DNA of 62,127 nucleotides from assembly GCF_009711445.1 (NCBI RefSeq), contig NZ_SMMC01000213.1, positions 1 through 62,127 on the forward strand, read 5' to 3'. Position numbers and translations under genes: made by a program. The notes under the pieces were generated by a model, which worked only from the letters and a program-made list of their open reading frames with translations, was not told where the DNA came from and did not search any database. The DNA comes from Curvivirga aplysinae (GTDB taxonomy: Bacteria; Pseudomonadota; Alphaproteobacteria; UBA8366; Aestuariispiraceae). How positions within the stretch are numbered: position 1 is the stretch's first letter; every line of letters starts with the position of its first letter. Below are positions 19,091 to 56,090 of the stretch, one piece after another.

Positions 19091-19936
19091 ATGCGTTTTG
19101 AGGGGACAGACTCTTATGTGGCAACTGATGATTTAACCATTGCTGTAAATGCCGCGATTACCTTGCAACGCCCTTTATTAGTTAAAGGTGAACCTGGTAC
19201 TGGTAAAACAGTATTGGCGCAGGAAGTTGCTAAGAGTTTAGGACGCCCATTAATTGAATGGGGTATAAAATCAACAACGCGTGCGCAGCAAGGTCTTTAC
19301 GAATATGACGCGGTTAGTCGACTACGCGATAGCCAACTAGGTGACGATAAAGTTCACGATATTTCTAATTACATTGTCAAAGGCAAGCTTTGGGAAGCTT
19401 TCGAGGCGGATCAGGCTCCGATTTTGTTAATTGACGAAATTGACAAAGCTGATATCGAATTCCCAAACGATTTGTTGCAAGAATTGGATCGAATGGAGTT
19501 TTATGTCTATGAAACCAAGCAAATGGTGAAGGCAACTAATCGCCCCGTCGTGATCATCACATCAAATAATGAAAAAGAACTGCCAGATGCATTTTTACGT
19601 CGTTGTTTCTTCCATTATATTCAATTCCCTGATCGTGAAACCATGCAAGATATTGTTGAGGTTCATTATCCCGATATTAAGAAAAACTTGCTGAAGGAAG
19701 CCCTCGGGATGTTTTATGATATTCGTGAGGTGCAAGGGCTTAAGAAACGTCCTTCTACATCAGAATTATTGGATTGGATTAAGCTGTTATTGGCAGAAGA
19801 TATCTCTGCAGAAGCATTACGAGAAACAGATACGAGTAAAGCTATACCGCCTATGCATGGGGCTTTGCTAAAGAATGAACAAGATGTTCATATCTTTGAA
19901 CGTCTTGCGTTTATGGCGCGTCGACAACAACGCTAG
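19091..19936 (+). CDS. MoxR-family AAA+ ATPase
   Basis: This 281-residue ATPase has Walker A GEPGTGKT (about 36-43), Walker B LLIDEID and sensor 1 VIITSNNEKELPDAFLRRC. MoxR ATPases act as chaperones for maturation of metal enzymes or complexes and are usually followed by a von Willebrand factor A (CoxE-like) gene. Here no such gene follows: the next gene is sppA on the other strand, after a bidirectional terminator. The start ATG at 19091 has a GGGAG site a few bases upstream. Confidence 0.93.
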   Translation: MRFEGTDSYVATDDLTIAVNAAITLQRPLLVKGEPGTGKTVLAQEVAKSLGRPLIEWGIKSTTRAQQGLYEYDAVSRLRDSQLGDDKVHDISNYIVKGKLWEAFEADQAPILLIDEIDKADIEFPNDLLQELDRMEFYVYETKQMVKATNRPVVIITSNNEKELPDAFLRRCFFHYIQFPDRETMQDIVEVHYPDIKKNLLKEALGMFYDIREVQGLKKRPSTSELLDWIKLLLAEDISAEALRETDTSKAIPPMHGALLKNEQDVHIFERLAFMARRQQR

Positions 19937-45284: not shown

Positions 45285-45983
45285 ATGAAACGCTTTTATA
45301 AGAATGCAGGTATTGCTGAATCTGGCGATAACTTTGTTGTGCAGTTAGATGGACGATCTATCAAAACGAAATCCAAAGTCACACTTGAAGTGCCATCAGC
45401 TGCTTTAGCTGAAATCATTGCCGAAGAATGGAATGCACAAGGTGAAGAAGTTGATCCAACTTCAATGCCGATTATGACCCTTGCAAATACGACGGTTGAT
45501 CGTGTGATGCCATCGCATAAAGAGATCGCGGATATGCTGGCAGAATATGGTGGTAACGATCTATTGTGTTATCGCGCGGAACCCACTCAGGAAGAATTGG
45601 TGCGTAAGCAGCAAGATCAATGGAATCCATGGATCGATTGGGCAATGCGTGAGTTGGATGCACCTTTGAAAGTTACCACTGGTATTATGCATGTGGAGCA
45701 AGATGAAAAAGCTGTTTCTGCGCTGGCGAAGCTTGTACATGCGACAACTGCTTTTGAACTAACCGCCTTACATGAATTTACGACAATGTCTGGATCACTT
45801 GTTCTAGGGCTTGCGGTATTGCGTGAAGAGCTCCCTGCTGCTGAGGCGTTGAAATTAGGCCTTCTAGATGAGCTTCATCAAGCTGAATTATGGGGGGAAG
45901 ATTTCGAAGCACAGGATCGTCGCGAAAAATATCATCGTGAAATGACCCAAGCAGAAACTTTTCTTAAAGCTTTACGCGCCTGA
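45285..45983 (+). CDS. ATP12-family F1-ATPase assembly chaperone
   Basis: This 232-residue protein matches the ATP12 family (MKRFYKNAGI start, VQLDGRSIKTKSKVTLEVPSAALAEIIAEEWNAQGEEVDP, and GSLVLGLAVLREELPAAEA). In mitochondria ATP12 binds the F1 alpha subunit; alphaproteobacterial members are thought to do the same. Its presence is one of the class markers in this window. No ribosome site is very strong, and the gene is 71 bases after the AsmA gene. Confidence 0.94.
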   Translation: MKRFYKNAGIAESGDNFVVQLDGRSIKTKSKVTLEVPSAALAEIIAEEWNAQGEEVDPTSMPIMTLANTTVDRVMPSHKEIADMLAEYGGNDLLCYRAEPTQEELVRKQQDQWNPWIDWAMRELDAPLKVTTGIMHVEQDEKAVSALAKLVHATTAFELTALHEFTTMSGSLVLGLAVLREELPAAEALKLGLLDELHQAELWGEDFEAQDRREKYHREMTQAETFLKALRA

Positions 45984-46070: not shown

Positions 46071-46099
46071 TTGTACCATTCGCTAGCGTATGGTATGCT
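46071..46099 (+). promoter_or_regulatory. Candidate sigma-70 promoter for pccB-pccA
   Basis: A -35-like TTGTAC (46071-46076) and a -10-like TATGCT (46094-46099) are separated by exactly 17 bases. The spacer is filled by the first palindromic operator. The -35 is a weak match (TTG only), so regulated activity is plausible. Confidence 0.5.
46076..46093. promoter_or_regulatory. Palindromic operator 1 (between -35 and -10)
   Basis: CCATTCGCTAGCGTATGG is palindromic except for one pair. A near-identical copy lies 62 bases downstream. Its position across the promoter spacer suits a repressor that blocks RNA polymerase. Confidence 0.65.
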
Positions 46100-46137
46100 T
46101 TTTCTTGCGCGATGCATTTTCTTGCTATATCTATTTT

Positions 46138-46155
46138 CCATACGGTAGCGTATGG
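46138..46155. promoter_or_regulatory. Palindromic operator 2 (in the leader)
   Basis: CCATACGGTAGCGTATGG matches operator 1 at 16 of 18 positions and is palindromic except for one pair. The 62-base distance from operator 1 is close to six helical turns, which would place bound dimers on the same face of the DNA and permit looping. Confidence 0.65.
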
Positions 46156-46309
46156 TGGCGTGTGTGGTTAAAGAAGTGATCGGTGTTATAGTCCTTTTTT
46201 AATTATGTGAGGCGGGTAGGAAAACGGGTGTAATCCATACCTAATAGTCATGATTTGAAATGCAAGATATTTGCGGTGTGAGTAACTAAAACAACAAAGG
46301 GTAAGCTTG

Positions 46310-47842
46310 ATGAAAGATATTATCCATGCCTTGGAAGAAAAACGGGACCAAGCCCGATTAGGCGGTGGGCAGCGTCGTATTGATGCGCAGCATAGCAAGG
46401 GGAAACTGACTGCGCGAGAACGGATTGATCTGTTTCTTGATGAAGGGTCTTTTGAAGAATGGGACATGTTCGTCGAACATGACTGTACCGATTTTGGCAT
46501 GGAAGAAAACAAAATGCCGGGGGATGGTGTTGTAACTGGATATGGCACTGTAAATGGCCGTCAGGTATTTGTTTTCTCTCAAGATTTTACCGTATTTGGT
46601 GGGTCTCTTTCGGCGGCGCATGCACGTAAAATTGTCAAGGTGATGGAACAGGCTATGAAAGTCGGCGTTCCTGTGATCGGCCTGAATGATTCTGGTGGTG
46701 CACGTATTCAGGAAGGTGTGGCATCGCTGGCTGGTTATGCGGATGTCTTCCAACAGAATGTATTGGCATCTGGCGTGATCCCGCAAATTTCCATGATCAT
46801 GGGACCTTGCGCTGGTGGGGCGGTTTATTCTCCTGCAATTACTGATTATATCTTTATGGTGAAAGATAGTTCTTACATGTTTGTGACAGGTCCGGAAGTT
46901 GTAAAAACCGTGACCAACGAAGAAGTTACACAGGAAGAACTTGGCGGTGCAATTACCCATACAACCAAATCCGGTGTTGCGGATAAAGCGTTTGAAAATG
47001 ATGTGGAAGCCATTGGCCAGCTGCGTCGTTTCTTAAGTTTCTTGCCAAGTAACAATCGTGAGAAAGCGCCAAGTAAGCCGACATCTGACCCGGCCAATCG
47101 CGTGGAAATGTCTTTGGATACGTTGGTTCCGGAAAACCCGAACAAACCCTATGATATGAAAGAGCTGATCCATAAAATGGTGGATGAAGGTGATTTCTTT
47201 GAAGTCCAACCTGAATATGCAGCCAATATCATTTGTGGCTATGCCCGTGTCGAAGGGCAAACAGTTGGTATCGTTGCCAACCAGCCAATGGTCTTGGCAG
47301 GATGTCTGGATATTGCGAGTTCTATTAAGGCCGCACGTTTTATCCGTTTTTGTGACAGTTTCAACATCCCAATCTTAACCTTGGTTGACGTACCGGGCTT
47401 CTTACCGGGCACGTCCCAAGAATATGGCGGTATCATTAAACATGGCGCCAAGCTTCTTTATGCATATGCCGAAGCAACGGTACCAAAGGTAACCTTGATT
47501 ACTCGCAAAGCCTATGGTGGGGCTTATGACGTGATGGCGTCTAAACATCTACGTGGGGATGTGAATTACGCTTGGCCGTCTGCGGAAATCGCGGTGATGG
47601 GTGCGAAAGGGGCGGTTGAGATTATCTTCCGTGCAGATCGTGATAATCCTAAAAAAATCGCAGAAAAAGAACAGGAATATAAAGATAAGTTTGCCAATCC
47701 ATTCGTGGCAGGCTCACTGGGCTTTATTGACGATGTGATCCGTCCGCATAACACACGTCCACGTATTGCACGTGCATTGCGTATGTTACGCACTAAGAAA
47801 CTTGAAAATCCGTGGCGCAAGCACGGCAATATCCCGCTTTAA
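46310..47842 (+). CDS. pccB: Propionyl-CoA carboxylase beta subunit
   Basis: This 510-residue carboxyltransferase subunit moves CO2 from biotin to propionyl-CoA, giving methylmalonyl-CoA. Family features are clear: [20 protein letters not shown], the oxyanion-type [21 protein letters not shown], and [25 protein letters not shown] with AYGGAYDVM. Propionyl-CoA carboxylase is more likely than a general acyl-CoA carboxylase, but specificity cannot be proved by eye. The ATG at 46310 with AAAGGG upstream is chosen over a TTG at 46307. pccA follows after 21 bases. Confidence 0.93.
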
Positions 47843-47863: not shown

Positions 47864-49864
47864 ATGTTTAAGAAAATTCTCATTGCGAACCGCGGCGAAA
47901 TTGCTTGTCGCGTGATTAAAACAGCCAAGAAAATGGGCATTAAAACTGTGGCGGTTTATTCCGATGCAGATGATGGTGCCTTGCATATGCGTATGGCGGA
48001 TGAAGCTGTGCATATTGGCCCTGCGGCGTCGGCGGAAAGCTATCTTGTGATCGACAAGATTTTGGATGCGATCAAACAAACAGGCGCCGAAGCTGTCCAT
48101 CCGGGCTATGGTTTCTTGTCCGAAAATAAGCTCTTTGCCGAAGCGTTGGAAAAAGCAGGCGTTGCTTTTATTGGGCCACCTAAAGGCGCGATCGAAGCCA
48201 TGGGTGACAAGATCGAATCCAAGAAACTGGCGATCAATGCAGGTGTAAGTTCTGTCCCCGGTCATGTGGAAGCAATCGACGATCCAGAAGAAGCCGTAAA
48301 AATTGCTAACGGCATTGGTTATCCGGTGATGTTGAAGGCCTCTGCTGGTGGTGGCGGTAAAGGTATGCGCCTTGCCTGGAATGATGATGAATGCCGCGAA
48401 GGCCTTGTATCTGCGATGAATGAAGGCCGTGCCTCTTTCGGGGATGATCGTGTGTTTATTGAAAAATTCATTGAACAACCACGCCATATTGAAATTCAGG
48501 TCATGGCAGATAAACACGGCAATACCCTCTATTTTGGAGAACGTGAATGTTCTATTCAACGTCGTCATCAAAAAGTATTGGAAGAAGCCCCATCTCCATT
48601 CTTGGATGAAGCTACCCGTGAAGCCATGGGGGAACAGGCTGTGGCCTTGGCGAAGGAAGTTGATTACTGCTCCGCCGGTACTGTGGAATTCATCGTGGAT
48701 AAGGATAAAAACTTCTATTTTCTAGAAATGAATACACGTTTGCAGGTGGAACATCCGGTTACCGAGCTTATCACAGGTTATGATCTGGTCGAATTGATGA
48801 TCCGTGTGGCAAATGATGAAAAACTGCCAATGAAGCAGGAAGATGTGAAATTGACAGGCTGGGCCCTTGAAGCGCGTCTTTATGCGGAAGACCCAGAACG
48901 TGGCTTCCTGCCATCCACCGGTCGTCTGGTTCAATATACAGCCCCGGAAGAAATCGAAGGCAAAGTTCGTGTGGATACGGGTGTTGAAGAAGGTGCTGAA
49001 ATTTCCATGTTCTATGACCCGATGATTGCCAAATTGGTCACCGGGGGTAAGGATCGCAAGGAAGCTTTTGATAATATGCAGCAAGCCTTGGACCTGTATC
49101 ATGTACGTGGTCTTAGTCATAACCTTGGTTTCTTGAACCAGCTTTGTGGGGATGAAGACATCCGTGCAGGGAATATGACCACCAACTTTATCGGGGATCA
49201 TTATCCAGACGGCATGACGGAAGCGTTATTAGCCCCTAAGAACCCAAAACTTTTTGCAGCCGTGGCGTCTATGATCCATATGCGTGAATTGGAAGAAGAA
49301 CAAGGCTTATCCGGCCGTGCCACACCTGCGGAGCCGTTTAAGAAGGGTAAGTTTAATGCCTTCTTGGGTGAAAAGGATAAGATCGAGTATAAGATCAAAA
49401 TCAAAAAACGTTCTGATACTCATGTGACGGTGAAAGTGGATCGTGAAGAGTTTGAAATTGAGTCTAGCTGGAGCCCGATTGAGCCGATTGTGAAGACAAT
49501 GGTGAATGATGCCCCCGTGGTGATGCAGCTCGATACATCCGAAGGCGGCAGTATCCTGTCCCATGACGGCGCGCGTATTCGGGTACAACTGATCGAACGT
49601 CGCTTGGCACATCTCTTACGCTTGATGCCGTATAAGGAGCCACCTGATCTTTCCAAATTCCTGCTGTCCCCAATGCCGGGCTTGTTGGTCCGTCTTTCTG
49701 TCAAAGAAGGTGACCAAGTGAAAGCTGGTAGTGAACTTGCAGTGGTAGAAGCCATGAAAATGGAAAATATCCTGCGCGCTGAACAGGATGTCACCATCAA
49801 AGCGGTTTATGCAGAAGATGGCGATAACCTCGCCGTTGACCAAAAAATCGTAGAGTTTGAATAA
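47864..49864 (+). CDS. pccA: Propionyl-CoA carboxylase alpha subunit (biotin carboxylase + BCCP)
   Basis: This 666-residue subunit has a biotin carboxylase domain (MFKKILIANRGEIACRVI start; ATP loop KASAGGGGKGMR; EMNTRLQVEHPVTE), a linking BT domain that contacts the beta subunit, and a C-terminal biotin carrier domain with biotinylated K632 in EAMKMEN. It charges its biotin with bicarbonate using ATP. It stands 21 bases after pccB behind a strong TAGGAGG ribosome site and ends with a terminator, so pccB-pccA is a two-gene operon. The GC-rich, well-conserved coding suggests core metabolism. Confidence 0.96.
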   Translation: MFKKILIANRGEIACRVIKTAKKMGIKTVAVYSDADDGALHMRMADEAVHIGPAASAESYLVIDKILDAIKQTGAEAVHPGYGFLSENKLFAEALEKAGVAFIGPPKGAIEAMGDKIESKKLAINAGVSSVPGHVEAIDDPEEAVKIANGIGYPVMLKASAGGGGKGMRLAWNDDECREGLVSAMNEGRASFGDDRVFIEKFIEQPRHIEIQVMADKHGNTLYFGERECSIQRRHQKVLEEAPSPFLDEATREAMGEQAVALAKEVDYCSAGTVEFIVDKDKNFYFLEMNTRLQVEHPVTELITGYDLVELMIRVANDEKLPMKQEDVKLTGWALEARLYAEDPERGFLPSTGRLVQYTAPEEIEGKVRVDTGVEEGAEISMFYDPMIAKLVTGGKDRKEAFDNMQQALDLYHVRGLSHNLGFLNQLCGDEDIRAGNMTTNFIGDHYPDGMTEALLAPKNPKLFAAVASMIHMRELEEEQGLSGRATPAEPFKKGKFNAFLGEKDKIEYKIKIKKRSDTHVTVKVDREEFEIESSWSPIEPIVKTMVNDAPVVMQLDTSEGGSILSHDGARIRVQLIERRLAHLLRLMPYKEPPDLSKFLLSPMPGLLVRLSVKEGDQVKAGSELAVVEAMKMENILRAEQDVTIKAVYAEDGDNLAVDQKIVEFE

Positions 49865-52513: not shown

Positions 52514-53230
52514 TTAGTTTCCCAAATAGTCTTTAACCGAAGGAGATTGAGTATTGGTATTTAAGATATCTTCCGGTTTTCCAAATTCTTCGATTCTCCC
52601 CTCTTTGATATAGGCGACTTGATCTGCGAAGCCGAGGCTGTCCATCGGGCTATGGGTAGAATAGATCACGGTGAGGTTTAAATCTTCTTGGGCCTGTTTG
52701 ATCAGGCGCATCATGTTTTTAGACAGGCTAGGATCAAGAGCACTAAAGGGTTCATCTAGTAAAAGAAGTGGTTTATGACGCACCAAGGCGCGGGCTAAGG
52801 CGACGCGCTGGCGTTGGCCGCCTGATAAAGTGGCAGGTAAACGTTCTCCCATATTATCCAATCCCACATGGGAAAGGGCGTTTGCTACATTTTCCTGATC
52901 TTTTTTAGATAGCTTTAAGCCCGGATCAATACCAATCGCCACATTTTGGGTAATGCTAAGATGTGGGAAAAGATTGTGATGTTGAAACAACATGGTGATC
53001 GGGCGTTCACTTGGCGCAAGGGGAATAAGATCATTACCTTGAAAAGAGAGTGTGCCTTGGTGAGGGGATAAGAAACCTGCGATTAAGTCTAACAAGGTTG
53101 TTTTACCGCCGCCACTTGGGCCGATCAGGGCAAGGATGTCACCTTGTTTTAAGTTGAAGTCATAGCGAAGCGTTAAATCTTTATAGTTATATTGAATATC
53201 GGAAAGGATCAGGCCTGTTTGTTGTATCAT
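52514..53230 (-). CDS. thiQ: Thiamine ABC transporter ATP-binding protein ThiQ
   Basis: This 238-residue ABC ATPase has Walker A GPSGGGKTT, signature LSGGQRQR, Walker B LLLLDEPFSALD and the switch H in STHS. It powers thiamine uptake with ThiP and ThiB. It overlaps thiP by 4 bases. The order thiB-thiP-thiQ behind a TPP riboswitch makes the thiamine role certain rather than iron or other oligoelements. Confidence 0.96.
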   Translation of the reverse strand: MIQQTGLILSDIQYNYKDLTLRYDFNLKQGDILALIGPSGGGKTTLLDLIAGFLSPHQGTLSFQGNDLIPLAPSERPITMLFQHHNLFPHLSITQNVAIGIDPGLKLSKKDQENVANALSHVGLDNMGERLPATLSGGQRQRVALARALVRHKPLLLLDEPFSALDPSLSKNMMRLIKQAQEDLNLTVIYSTHSPMDSLGFADQVAYIKEGRIEEFGKPEDILNTNTQSPSVKDYLGN

Positions 53231-54849
53231 TGGGTTTGTCCTTTCGGTCCACCAATCAGGCGTTCCAATATAATAAATAAGAGATAGCAGGTTAGAATTA
53301 GGATCAAGGCCGCAAAACTTGCCTCATGTAACCGATAGGACCCAATTGCCCGATAGATATAGAGCGGCAGGGTGGAAAAATCCTGACTACCAAATAGGGC
53401 GATAATCCCGAAATCCCCGATCGATAAGGTGGTCGCATAGGCCATGGCAAGACCAATGGGTTTTCGAAGTAGTGAAAAATCTATCATGCGAAAACGGGTC
53501 CATCCTTGAATGCCCATACTGATACAAAGAGGTTGGGTTTCCTGAAACCGTTGTTGAAAGGCAGGAATTAAAATCCGCAAAGCAAAGGGTAAAGACATTA
53601 ATGCGTTAATCAGGATCACTAAAAATGGTCCGATCTGATCTAAACTCGCATAATTGGAAAGCACAATGAATAACCCTGTCGCCAAGGCAAAGGGGGAAAA
53701 GACTAGAATGAGTGCCCCGATGGTTTCAACAAAACTGCGTATGGATCTGTTTTGGATATGGCGTAATCCCAAACATAAACTGACCGCCAAAAGGATAGAG
53801 AGACTTCCGGCAGAAAGCGATATACCTAGGCTGATCAACCCTGCATTTAGAAGCGCTGGTTTACTCAAATAATTCCATTCAAAATGATAGAGCGCTTTTG
53901 CAATAACGGAAAACAAAGGCGGAAACACCAATAACAGGATCAAGGCAAGGCTGACCCAACCGAAGAGGCGTGCCATCCAGCTTTTGTTCTGTAGGAATTT
54001 TAAAATGCTTTCCTGTCCGGTTTGATAGGAAATCTCTGTTTCACTTTGTTTGCCAAAACGTACAAGAATAAAGCTTAAAATCGCACAGATCGCCAATTGT
54101 AATCCGGATAAGGTGACGGCACGGGCCATATCAAAATCAAAATGAAGGGCTTGGTAGATAGCCACTTCTAATGTGGTCGCCTTTGGTCCACCTCCAAGGG
54201 ACAGGATAATGGCAAAGCTTGTGAAACATAACATAAAGATCAAGGCTGCCAAGCCGGGTAGAGCTGATCGCAAGGCAGGTAATTCAACTAATCTGAATCG
54301 CTGCCAAGGCGTGAAATTCAACTGGATCGCAGATCGCCATTGTTCTTGTGGGATGTCATTCAGGCGGGATAACAAGCTGCGCACTGCCAGTGGCGTGTTG
54401 AAAAAGACATGGGCCAAAAGGATACCGAATAATCCATAAAGATAACCTTTGGTTTCAATGCCAAGGCTTCGCATCATCCAGACAATATAGCCGGAATTCC
54501 CATGTACCTGAATAATCCCGAGGATGGCCACAATGACCGGCATGACAAGGCAGAGACCAAAATAGGTCAGGATGATCCTTTTACCGGGAAAATTATGGTA
54601 ATAGAAAAATCGTGCTAACGGGATCGCAAATAGAAGGCTTAATCCCGTGGAAAGAGCAGCTTGCCATAAGGTGAAAACCAATACCCTTTTGATATAGCGA
54701 CTTTGTAAAACATCGAAGAAATTATAGCTTTCAGCCTGTAAGGCTAAATGAAAAAAAGCGGTCCCCAAAATCGTGATCAATATGCCAATGGATATCAGCA
54801 GTAAGATTGTATCACTGCCAAATTTGGAGTTGTTATAAAAGATACGCAT
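53227..54849 (-). CDS. thiP: Thiamine ABC transporter permease ThiP
   Basis: This 540-residue permease has about twelve membrane helices in two homologous halves, each with an EAA-type loop (WRSAIQLNFTPWQRFRLVELPALR and PLCISMGIQGWTRFRMIDFSLLRKP) that contacts ThiQ. It starts 34 bases after the thiB stop. Iron permeases of the FbpB type are similar, but operon and riboswitch argue for thiamine. Confidence 0.95.
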   Translation of the reverse strand: MRIFYNNSKFGSDTILLLISIGILITILGTAFFHLALQAESYNFFDVLQSRYIKRVLVFTLWQAALSTGLSLLFAIPLARFFYYHNFPGKRIILTYFGLCLVMPVIVAILGIIQVHGNSGYIVWMMRSLGIETKGYLYGLFGILLAHVFFNTPLAVRSLLSRLNDIPQEQWRSAIQLNFTPWQRFRLVELPALRSALPGLAALIFMLCFTSFAIILSLGGGPKATTLEVAIYQALHFDFDMARAVTLSGLQLAICAILSFILVRFGKQSETEISYQTGQESILKFLQNKSWMARLFGWVSLALILLLVFPPLFSVIAKALYHFEWNYLSKPALLNAGLISLGISLSAGSLSILLAVSLCLGLRHIQNRSIRSFVETIGALILVFSPFALATGLFIVLSNYASLDQIGPFLVILINALMSLPFALRILIPAFQQRFQETQPLCISMGIQGWTRFRMIDFSLLRKPIGLAMAYATTLSIGDFGIIALFGSQDFSTLPLYIYRAIGSYRLHEASFAALILILTCYLLFIILERLIGGPKGQTQ

Positions 54850-54883
54850 TTCAGGGACGCTTTGAAGGACTTAAACCGCTGGC

Positions 54884-55894
54884 TTATTGGCTAACGGCTT
54901 CCAACCATTCATCAACCCAGTCACTGTTATTCTTTGCCACATCTTCTGATGAGATAGACAAAGAGGTTTCTGGATAATGGATTTTATCTTTGGCAAAAGC
55001 TGCTGGTAATTCCCCCGCAGCCGCCACAGGCAACATCCAGTTTGTGGTTGGGATGATGGATTGGAATTTATCAGATACCATAAAGTTCAGGAATTGATCT
55101 GCCAAAGCGGGATTAGGCGCGTTTTTCAATTTTGCGGCCACTTCGATTTGTTCATAATGGCCTTCGCTGAAGGGCGCAGATTTATATTTAAATTCGCCTT
55201 CTGCTTCCATGTGATAGGCAGGTGAAGTGGTATAGCTCAACACCATATCTGCTTCCCCTTCCAGGAACATCCCGTACGCTTCGGACCAGCCTTTTGTGGT
55301 GGTAACAATTTTCTTGGATAGTTTTTCCCACGCTTCGCCTGCTTGGTCGCCATATACGGATTTTACCCAAAGCAATAAACCAAGGCCCGGGGAAGACGTA
55401 CGCGGATCTTGGATCACGATAGATACATCTGCATCTTCCACTAATGACTTTAAGCTTGTCGGTGGGGTTGTTTTGCTTGAATCATACACAAAAGCAAAAT
55501 GGCCATAATCAAACGGAACAAAAGTTGTGTCACTCCATCCATTAGGCAAGCTGAGTTTGGAAAGATCTGTGGCACTTTCGATAAAAAGTTCGGTGTTTTT
55601 TGCACGGGAAATTAGATTTTGATCAAGGCCAAGAACTATATCCGCTTTGCTGTTTGATCCTTCAAGACGTAAACGACTTAAAAGGCCAACCGCGTCTTCG
55701 GTAGCAACCCATTGTAAGTCACATCCGCATTCTGCTTCAAACGCTTTTTCCACTTGTGGACCCGGCCCCCAATCGGAGGTGAAGGAATCGTAAGTATAAA
55801 CGGTGAGGACATTGTCATTGGCATTTGCCAAAGCAGGGGCCAAAGCCAATACGGCAACGGCAAGAGATTTCTTAAATGTTTGAGATAAGCTCAT
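54884..55894 (-). CDS. thiB: Thiamine-binding periplasmic protein ThiB
   Basis: This 336-residue protein has a signal peptide (cleavage after ALANA at about residue 25) and the thiamine-binding family pattern (LTVYTYDSFTSDWGPGPQVEKAFEAECGCDLQWV near the N-terminus, residues about 30-63; VPFDYGHFAFVYDS). The ATG at 55894 is chosen because GGAG sits 6 bases before it; the ATG at 55906 overlaps that ribosome site. A TPP riboswitch lies upstream at 55995-56090. Confidence 0.96.
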   Translation of the reverse strand: MSLSQTFKKSLAVAVLALAPALANANDNVLTVYTYDSFTSDWGPGPQVEKAFEAECGCDLQWVATEDAVGLLSRLRLEGSNSKADIVLGLDQNLISRAKNTELFIESATDLSKLSLPNGWSDTTFVPFDYGHFAFVYDSSKTTPPTSLKSLVEDADVSIVIQDPRTSSPGLGLLLWVKSVYGDQAGEAWEKLSKKIVTTTKGWSEAYGMFLEGEADMVLSYTTSPAYHMEAEGEFKYKSAPFSEGHYEQIEVAAKLKNAPNPALADQFLNFMVSDKFQSIIPTTNWMLPVAAAGELPAAFAKDKIHYPETSLSISSEDVAKNNSDWVDEWLEAVSQ

Positions 55895-55994
55895 TTCGCG
55901 CTCCATTAAGGTTCCTGTTTAAAGGACCCAATTTGGTTAATGGGTAGCGGCGGTCTTGTATGAAATTTTCAGAATTTGAAAAACTCTGTGATTT

Positions 55995-56090
55995 CCTCAA
56001 TCCCTCCGCCGGAATTACCCGGTTCAGGTTCAGCGGGTTTTCGAAGAAAGTTTTCGAATCTCAGCTTGCAAAGCACCCCGTTGAGATCAG
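55995..56090 (-). ncRNA. TPP riboswitch (THI element)
   Basis: Read on the minus strand, the conserved TPP aptamer parts appear in order: GGGGTGC, GCTGAGA, ACCCGCTGAACCTGAACCGG and GTAATTCCGGCGGAGGGA. Between GCTGAGA and ACCCGC a 22-base hairpin (TTCGAAAA with its near complement) forms a modest P3a extension. Roughly 100 bases downstream lies the thiB start, with GGGTCCT and AGGAACC able to pair close to the ribosome site, consistent with translational or termination control by thiamine pyrophosphate. Confidence 0.95.

What the first reader, a model, noticed from the sequence alone, without database searches (positions are those of the whole stretch)
46071..46155. Duplicated 18-bp palindrome controlling the propionyl-CoA carboxylase operon
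CCATTCGCTAGCGTATGG and CCATACGGTAGCGTATGG (16/18 identical) lie 62 bases apart, about six helical turns. The first fills exactly the 17-base spacer between a -35 and -10 candidate. This is the pattern of a dimeric repressor with possible looping, and does not match the TTTGCAA-type site I know for PccR. The regulator is not encoded next door.
Basis: partly seen in the sequence, partly recalled or inferred. Interest (0 to 1): 0.6.

Follow-up and report, generated by a model that had tools for sequence, protein, structure and literature searches.

The report
Operator pair of a TetR regulon
Two matching DNA palindromes in front of the propionyl-CoA carboxylase genes belong to a small set of nearly identical sites that mark only the genes for breaking down propionate and valine plus one TetR-type repressor gene elsewhere in the genome, which is therefore very probably the protein that binds them.

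Summary
The two palindromes are real (46076-46093 and 46138-46155, 16/18 identical, 62 bp apart) and not chance. In the 3.56-Mb genome the motif MMATACGSNNSCGTATGK, one mismatch allowed, occurs at seven places only: pccBA (2), an isobutyryl-CoA dehydrogenase / 3-hydroxyisobutyryl-CoA hydrolase / mmsB operon (2), mmsA (1), and the promoter of an unlinked TetR gene (2). Two related genera repeat the pattern: 27 of 27 sites in three genomes lie at this pathway, tetR, one bioB or one short-chain dehydrogenase gene. The motif also marks the promoters of that TetR's homologues: 62 of 78 loci across Proteobacteria and cyanobacteria, against 3 copies in the other 576 kb. Four more distant MAGs of the same TetR clade carry an exact copy upstream of a methylmalonyl-CoA-mutase-like gene. 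Best explanation: a TetR repressor encoded on another contig holds the pcc promoter down from paired operators until an intermediate of the pathway accumulates. Binding, sign and ligand are inferred, not shown. The exact 17-bp-spacer geometry is peculiar to this genome; looping is weakly supported. It works like actinobacterial PccD, but in Alphaproteobacteria, with a different operator, where PccR would be expected.

The parts
46076..46093 (.). Operator site 1, CCATTCGCTAGCGTATGG
   Evidence: aligned with sites upstream of pccB in two other genera
46138..46155 (.). Operator site 2, CCATACGGTAGCGTATGG
   Evidence: aligned with sites upstream of pccB in two other genera
46071..46099 (+). Candidate promoter TTGTAC-17-TATGCT; the TATGCT lies in a block conserved in three genera, the TTGTAC does not
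   Evidence: weak consensus match, not experimentally mapped
46088..46097 (+). GTATGGTATG, a 5-base duplication that is absent in the two relatives
46093..46109 (+). GTATGCTTTTTCTTGCG, conserved as GTATGYTTTWTCTTGCG in three genera; probable -10 and start region
46310..47842 (+). pccB, propionyl-CoA carboxylase beta subunit (510 aa)
   Evidence: nearest solved relative 3n6r_B, E 2.4e-260
47864..49864 (+). pccA, propionyl-CoA carboxylase alpha subunit (666 aa)
   Evidence: nearest solved relative 3n6r_A, E 5.2e-240

Best explanation
The two palindromes are operators for a TetR-family dimer encoded elsewhere in the genome (contig C176, 222 aa, start at 19721, divergent from an acyl-CoA-ligase / liv-type ABC-transporter cluster). 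The regulator controls its own gene and the route that makes and removes propionyl-CoA: valine breakdown (isobutyryl-CoA dehydrogenase, 3-hydroxyisobutyryl-CoA hydrolase, mmsB, mmsA) and propionyl-CoA carboxylase here, plus propionate-CoA ligase and methylmalonyl-CoA mutase in related genera. Shown: the sites, their restriction to these promoters, their conservation, and the tie of the motif to this TetR subfamily. Inferred: direct binding; repression (site 1 abuts or overlaps the likely pcc promoter and TetR proteins are mostly repressors); a helping role of site 2, in the probable leader, by cooperative binding, roadblock or looping; release by an acyl-CoA or acid of the pathway, such as propionyl-CoA, methylmalonyl-CoA or isobutyryl-CoA.
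For: Own genome: 7 sites, all at four promoters, one of them the tetR gene; control 1 (genes). Sister genera: 9 and 11 sites, all at the same pathway, tetR, bioB or one dehydrogenase gene. pccB pair kept at 62, 65 and 66 bp in three genera. The motif stands next to tetR in 62 of 78 homologous loci from Proteobacteria and cyanobacteria, 3 copies elsewhere in 576 kb. Four distant MAGs carry an exact copy upstream of a mutase-like gene, and in two of them tetR lies beside valine-pathway genes. The genomes with pathway sites are one supported TetR clade (98/88); its sister clade has sites at tetR only. The recognition-helix stretch TKGSFYWHFKDR is invariant in 8 orthologues.
Against: No binding, expression or start-site data. 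The window's genome has no site upstream of its prpE, and none in the 142 bp available upstream of mcm, so the regulon is not the same in all genera. The acyl-CoA ligase / liv cluster next to tetR suggests that the ancestral target was another process. Sixteen of 78 homologous loci have no near-perfect site.
Confidence: 0.82

Rival explanations
1. The sites are operators of this pathway regulon, but another unlinked dimeric protein binds them, and the tetR gene is only one of its targets.
For: Binding by the TetR has not been shown; the window's genome also has other regulators, including two ScfR-family loci.
Against: The motif follows the promoters of this TetR subfamily across phyla, in 10 sampled genomes as the only exact copy in the genome, and tracks the TetR clade at the target genes.
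Confidence: 0.09
2. PccR-type (ScfR) control governs the operon and the palindromes are incidental.
For: PccR activates the operon in Rhodobacter (PMC10370305) and ScfR-family loci exist in this genome.
Against: No TTTGCAA/TTGCAAA within 600 bp of pccB; the palindromes are conserved and confined to the pathway.
Confidence: 0.04
3. The repeats act in RNA: the two arms (46075-46093 and 46138-46156, 89% complementary) form a hairpin in the leader, an attenuator or riboswitch.
For: Complementary arms with a 44-nt loop.
Against: Complementarity follows from each site being a palindrome; single sites occur at other promoters, at differing distances and even over the start codon of tetR; no Rfam family matched here.
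Confidence: 0.03

Closest known systems
PccD (TetR family) of Saccharopolyspora erythraea and Mycolicibacterium
   Same: A TetR-family protein that represses the propionyl-CoA carboxylase genes; relieved by methylmalonic acid in S. erythraea (PMC10933834, PMC11596240)
   Different: Actinobacteria; reported site (T/A)TGACG(G/C)TG(T/C)TG(T/A), unlike CATACGNNNNCGTATG; sequence kinship was not tested
PccR (ScfR family) of Rhodobacter
   Same: Regulates propionyl-CoA carboxylase / methylmalonyl-CoA pathway in Alphaproteobacteria (PMC10370305)
LiuR (MerR) and LiuQ (TetR) of Proteobacteria
   Same: Regulators of branched-chain amino acid utilisation; LiuQ is a TetR protein (PMC5343134)
   Different: LiuR is of another family; LiuQ is reported as confined to betaproteobacteria; its motif was not available here
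AibR (Myxococcus) and BkaR (Mycobacterium)
   Same: TetR fold: Z 14.8, rmsd 3.5, 175 aligned and Z 14.0, rmsd 4.0, 174 aligned; AibR was solved with isovaleryl-CoA
   Different: 15-18% identity and scores tied with many unrelated TetR proteins, so no special kinship is shown

Membership tests
TetR family of regulators (the C176 protein) | N-terminal TetR_N DNA-binding domain | tested here: met
   PF00440, 43.8 bits against a cut-off of 24
TetR family of regulators (the C176 protein) | All-helical TetR fold | tested here: met
   Model of the A. insulae orthologue (69% identical), pLDDT 88.8; 2np5_A Z 16.4, rmsd 3.1, 176 aligned
TetR family of regulators (the C176 protein) | Binds a palindromic operator and controls its own gene | tested here: inconclusive
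   Palindromes at its own promoter here and in 62 of 78 homologous loci; binding itself not testable here
PccR / ScfR control of pcc | TTTGCAA-type site upstream of pccB | tested here: not met
   None within 600 bp
PccD-type regulator | Operator of the PccD type upstream of pcc | tested here: not met
   The sites here are CATACGNNNNCGTATG; the PccD site reported in PMC10933834 differs
PccD-type regulator | Represses pcc; relieved by methylmalonate | not testable with these tools
   Needs protein and expression experiments
LiuQ | Orthology to LiuQ and possession of its motif | not tested
   LiuQ sequence and motif not in the held library

The most novel reading that the evidence does not exclude
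An undescribed TetR-family regulator of propionyl-CoA supply and removal in Alphaproteobacteria, which arose when a widespread TetR that elsewhere appears to watch mainly its own promoter acquired copies of its operator at the propionate, valine and mutase genes, and in one genus at bioB, which makes the cofactor of the carboxylase.
Probability: 0.6. Interest if true: 0.6.

Novelty: new member of a known kind. Interest (0 to 1): 0.5.

Why it matters
It gives a regulator, a DNA motif and a testable set of targets to a central carbon route (propionyl-CoA and valine) in marine Alphaproteobacteria whose pcc promoter lacks the recognised PccR site. It also offers a traceable case of regulon growth: the operator stays at the regulator's own promoter in a sister clade, while one clade carries it at a whole pathway.

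Tried and rejected
PccR-type sites upstream of pccB: none. C113:71439, a one-mismatch match of the looser pattern CCATACGNNNNCGTATGG, lies inside an NtrC-like ORF and was set aside as chance; the two-mismatch matches have no pathway context, and the count at up to 3 mismatches (90) does not exceed its control (104). The sigma-70 scans did not settle the promoter. Fold comparison did not single out a ligand class: FadR, AibR, BkaR and drug-binding TetR proteins tie. Exact motif strings are in no held paper, and searches for a TetR regulon of this pathway in Alphaproteobacteria found none; the library holds open-licence papers only, and Kazakov et al. 2009 (LiuR/LiuQ motifs) is not held. A class-wide sample gave close orthologues only within the window's family (4 of 386 genomes, the window's included), apart from the four MAGs.

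Full report
Observation. They are the only near-perfect 18-bp palindromes of the 326-bp region between an ATP12-family gene and pccB; none of 5000 Markov shuffles gave two similar ones. The operon downstream is propionyl-CoA carboxylase: the nearest solved relatives of the two subunits are 3n6r chains B and A.

Genome scan. With up to three mismatches to CCATACGCTAGCGTATGG the genome has six places. A pattern fitted to all sites found so far, MMATACGSNNSCGTATGK with one mismatch allowed, has seven (control one): two at pccBA, two at C156:19275/19322, one at C158:43730 and two at C176:19649/19693. C156 is an operon of an acyl-CoA dehydrogenase whose closest solved relative is human ACAD8 (isobutyryl-CoA dehydrogenase; E 2e-154 against 8e-103 for the next), a 3-hydroxyisobutyryl-CoA hydrolase (PRK05617, over cut-off) and a 3-hydroxyisobutyrate dehydrogenase (TIGR01692, over cut-off). 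C158 is methylmalonate-semialdehyde dehydrogenase (TIGR01722, over cut-off). These are steps of valine breakdown, which ends in propionyl-CoA. C176 is the promoter of a 222-aa TetR gene, divergent from an AMP-binding acyl-CoA ligase and a liv-type ABC transporter.

Relatives. It has nine sites and G002, another genus, eleven. Every one lies at tetR, pccBA, the acyl-CoA dehydrogenase operon, mmsA (G002), a propionate-CoA-ligase-like gene (best match PRK10524, below its cut-off), methylmalonyl-CoA mutase (PRK09426, over cut-off), bioB (G001) or a short-chain dehydrogenase gene (G002); one G002 site lies 76 bp inside the dehydrogenase gene. Upstream of pccB the pair is kept at 62, 65 and 66 bp in the three genera, and no site with up to two mismatches exists in the other eleven genomes of the family.

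Which protein. The motif marks the promoters of this TetR's homologues far beyond the family: of 78 loci from a scan of GTDB genomes, 62 have a site with at most one mismatch within 350 bp upstream of (or just inside) tetR, against three in the remaining 576 kb; exact copies are 32 against none. In the ten sampled distant genomes G047-G056 the only exact copy in the genome is the one at tetR. In the four MAGs nearest to the window's TetR the exact copy that is not at tetR stands about 80-120 bp upstream of a gene resembling the methylmalonyl-CoA mutase small subunit (TIGR00642 matched, below its cut-off, in the one tested), and two of the four have tetR beside valine-pathway genes. In the tree the window's TetR, G001, G002 and these four MAGs form one clade (98/88); the sister clade, in the same family as the window, keeps sites at tetR only.

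Mechanism. The alignment with relatives shows GTATGYTTTWTCTTGCG conserved at the right end of site 1. So the spacer is a peculiarity of this genome, while contact of site 1 with a probable -10 is shared. A TetR dimer there would block RNA polymerase, and site 2 would lie some 30-50 bases into the message. In several other promoters of the set the best sigma-70-like pair also overlaps a site, for instance TTGACA-17-TATGGT at the C156 operon; this is partly built in, because the palindrome's end resembles a -10. Repression, ligand and start site remain inference. Helical phasing of paired sites is marginal.

Comparison. It works like PccD of actinobacteria, a TetR repressor of pcc relieved by methylmalonic acid, and fills the role PccR has in Rhodobacter, but the operator differs from that of PccD and the PccR-type site is missing. 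It is filed under neither. The C176 protein is a TetR-family member by domain and fold. Overall: a new member of a known kind, a TetR catabolic regulon with its own motif, in a lineage where none was found described in the held literature.

Noticed in passing
tetR loci L112-L183, genomes G047-G056: A TetR subfamily spread over Alpha-, Beta- and Gammaproteobacteria and cyanobacteria keeps CATACGNNNNCGTATG at its own promoter; in ten sampled genomes that is the only exact copy, so these look like regulators of little beyond themselves or a neighbour. Their function is open.
   Followed up: partly
window 55984-56090, - strand: TPP riboswitch (RF00059, 77.8 bits) upstream of a binding-protein / permease / ATPase operon (52514-55906, - strand) that looks like a thiamine ABC transporter.
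   Followed up: no
L047 and L053 upstream of pccB; window 45285-45983: An ATP12-family chaperone-like gene precedes pccBA in all three genera (57-59% identity to the window's), conserved neighbourhood on the upstream side of the operators.
   Followed up: no
G013:C1:663736-667361: One family member has a second, 72%-identical pccB copy about 1.6 kb from an ScfR-family gene, which looks like a separate PccR-type unit.
   Followed up: no
L045:3448-3463 (G001 bioB): In A. insulae an exact operator copy lies upstream of bioB, followed by genes that read as bioF, bioD and bioA; this would tie biotin supply to the biotin-dependent carboxylase.
   Followed up: partly
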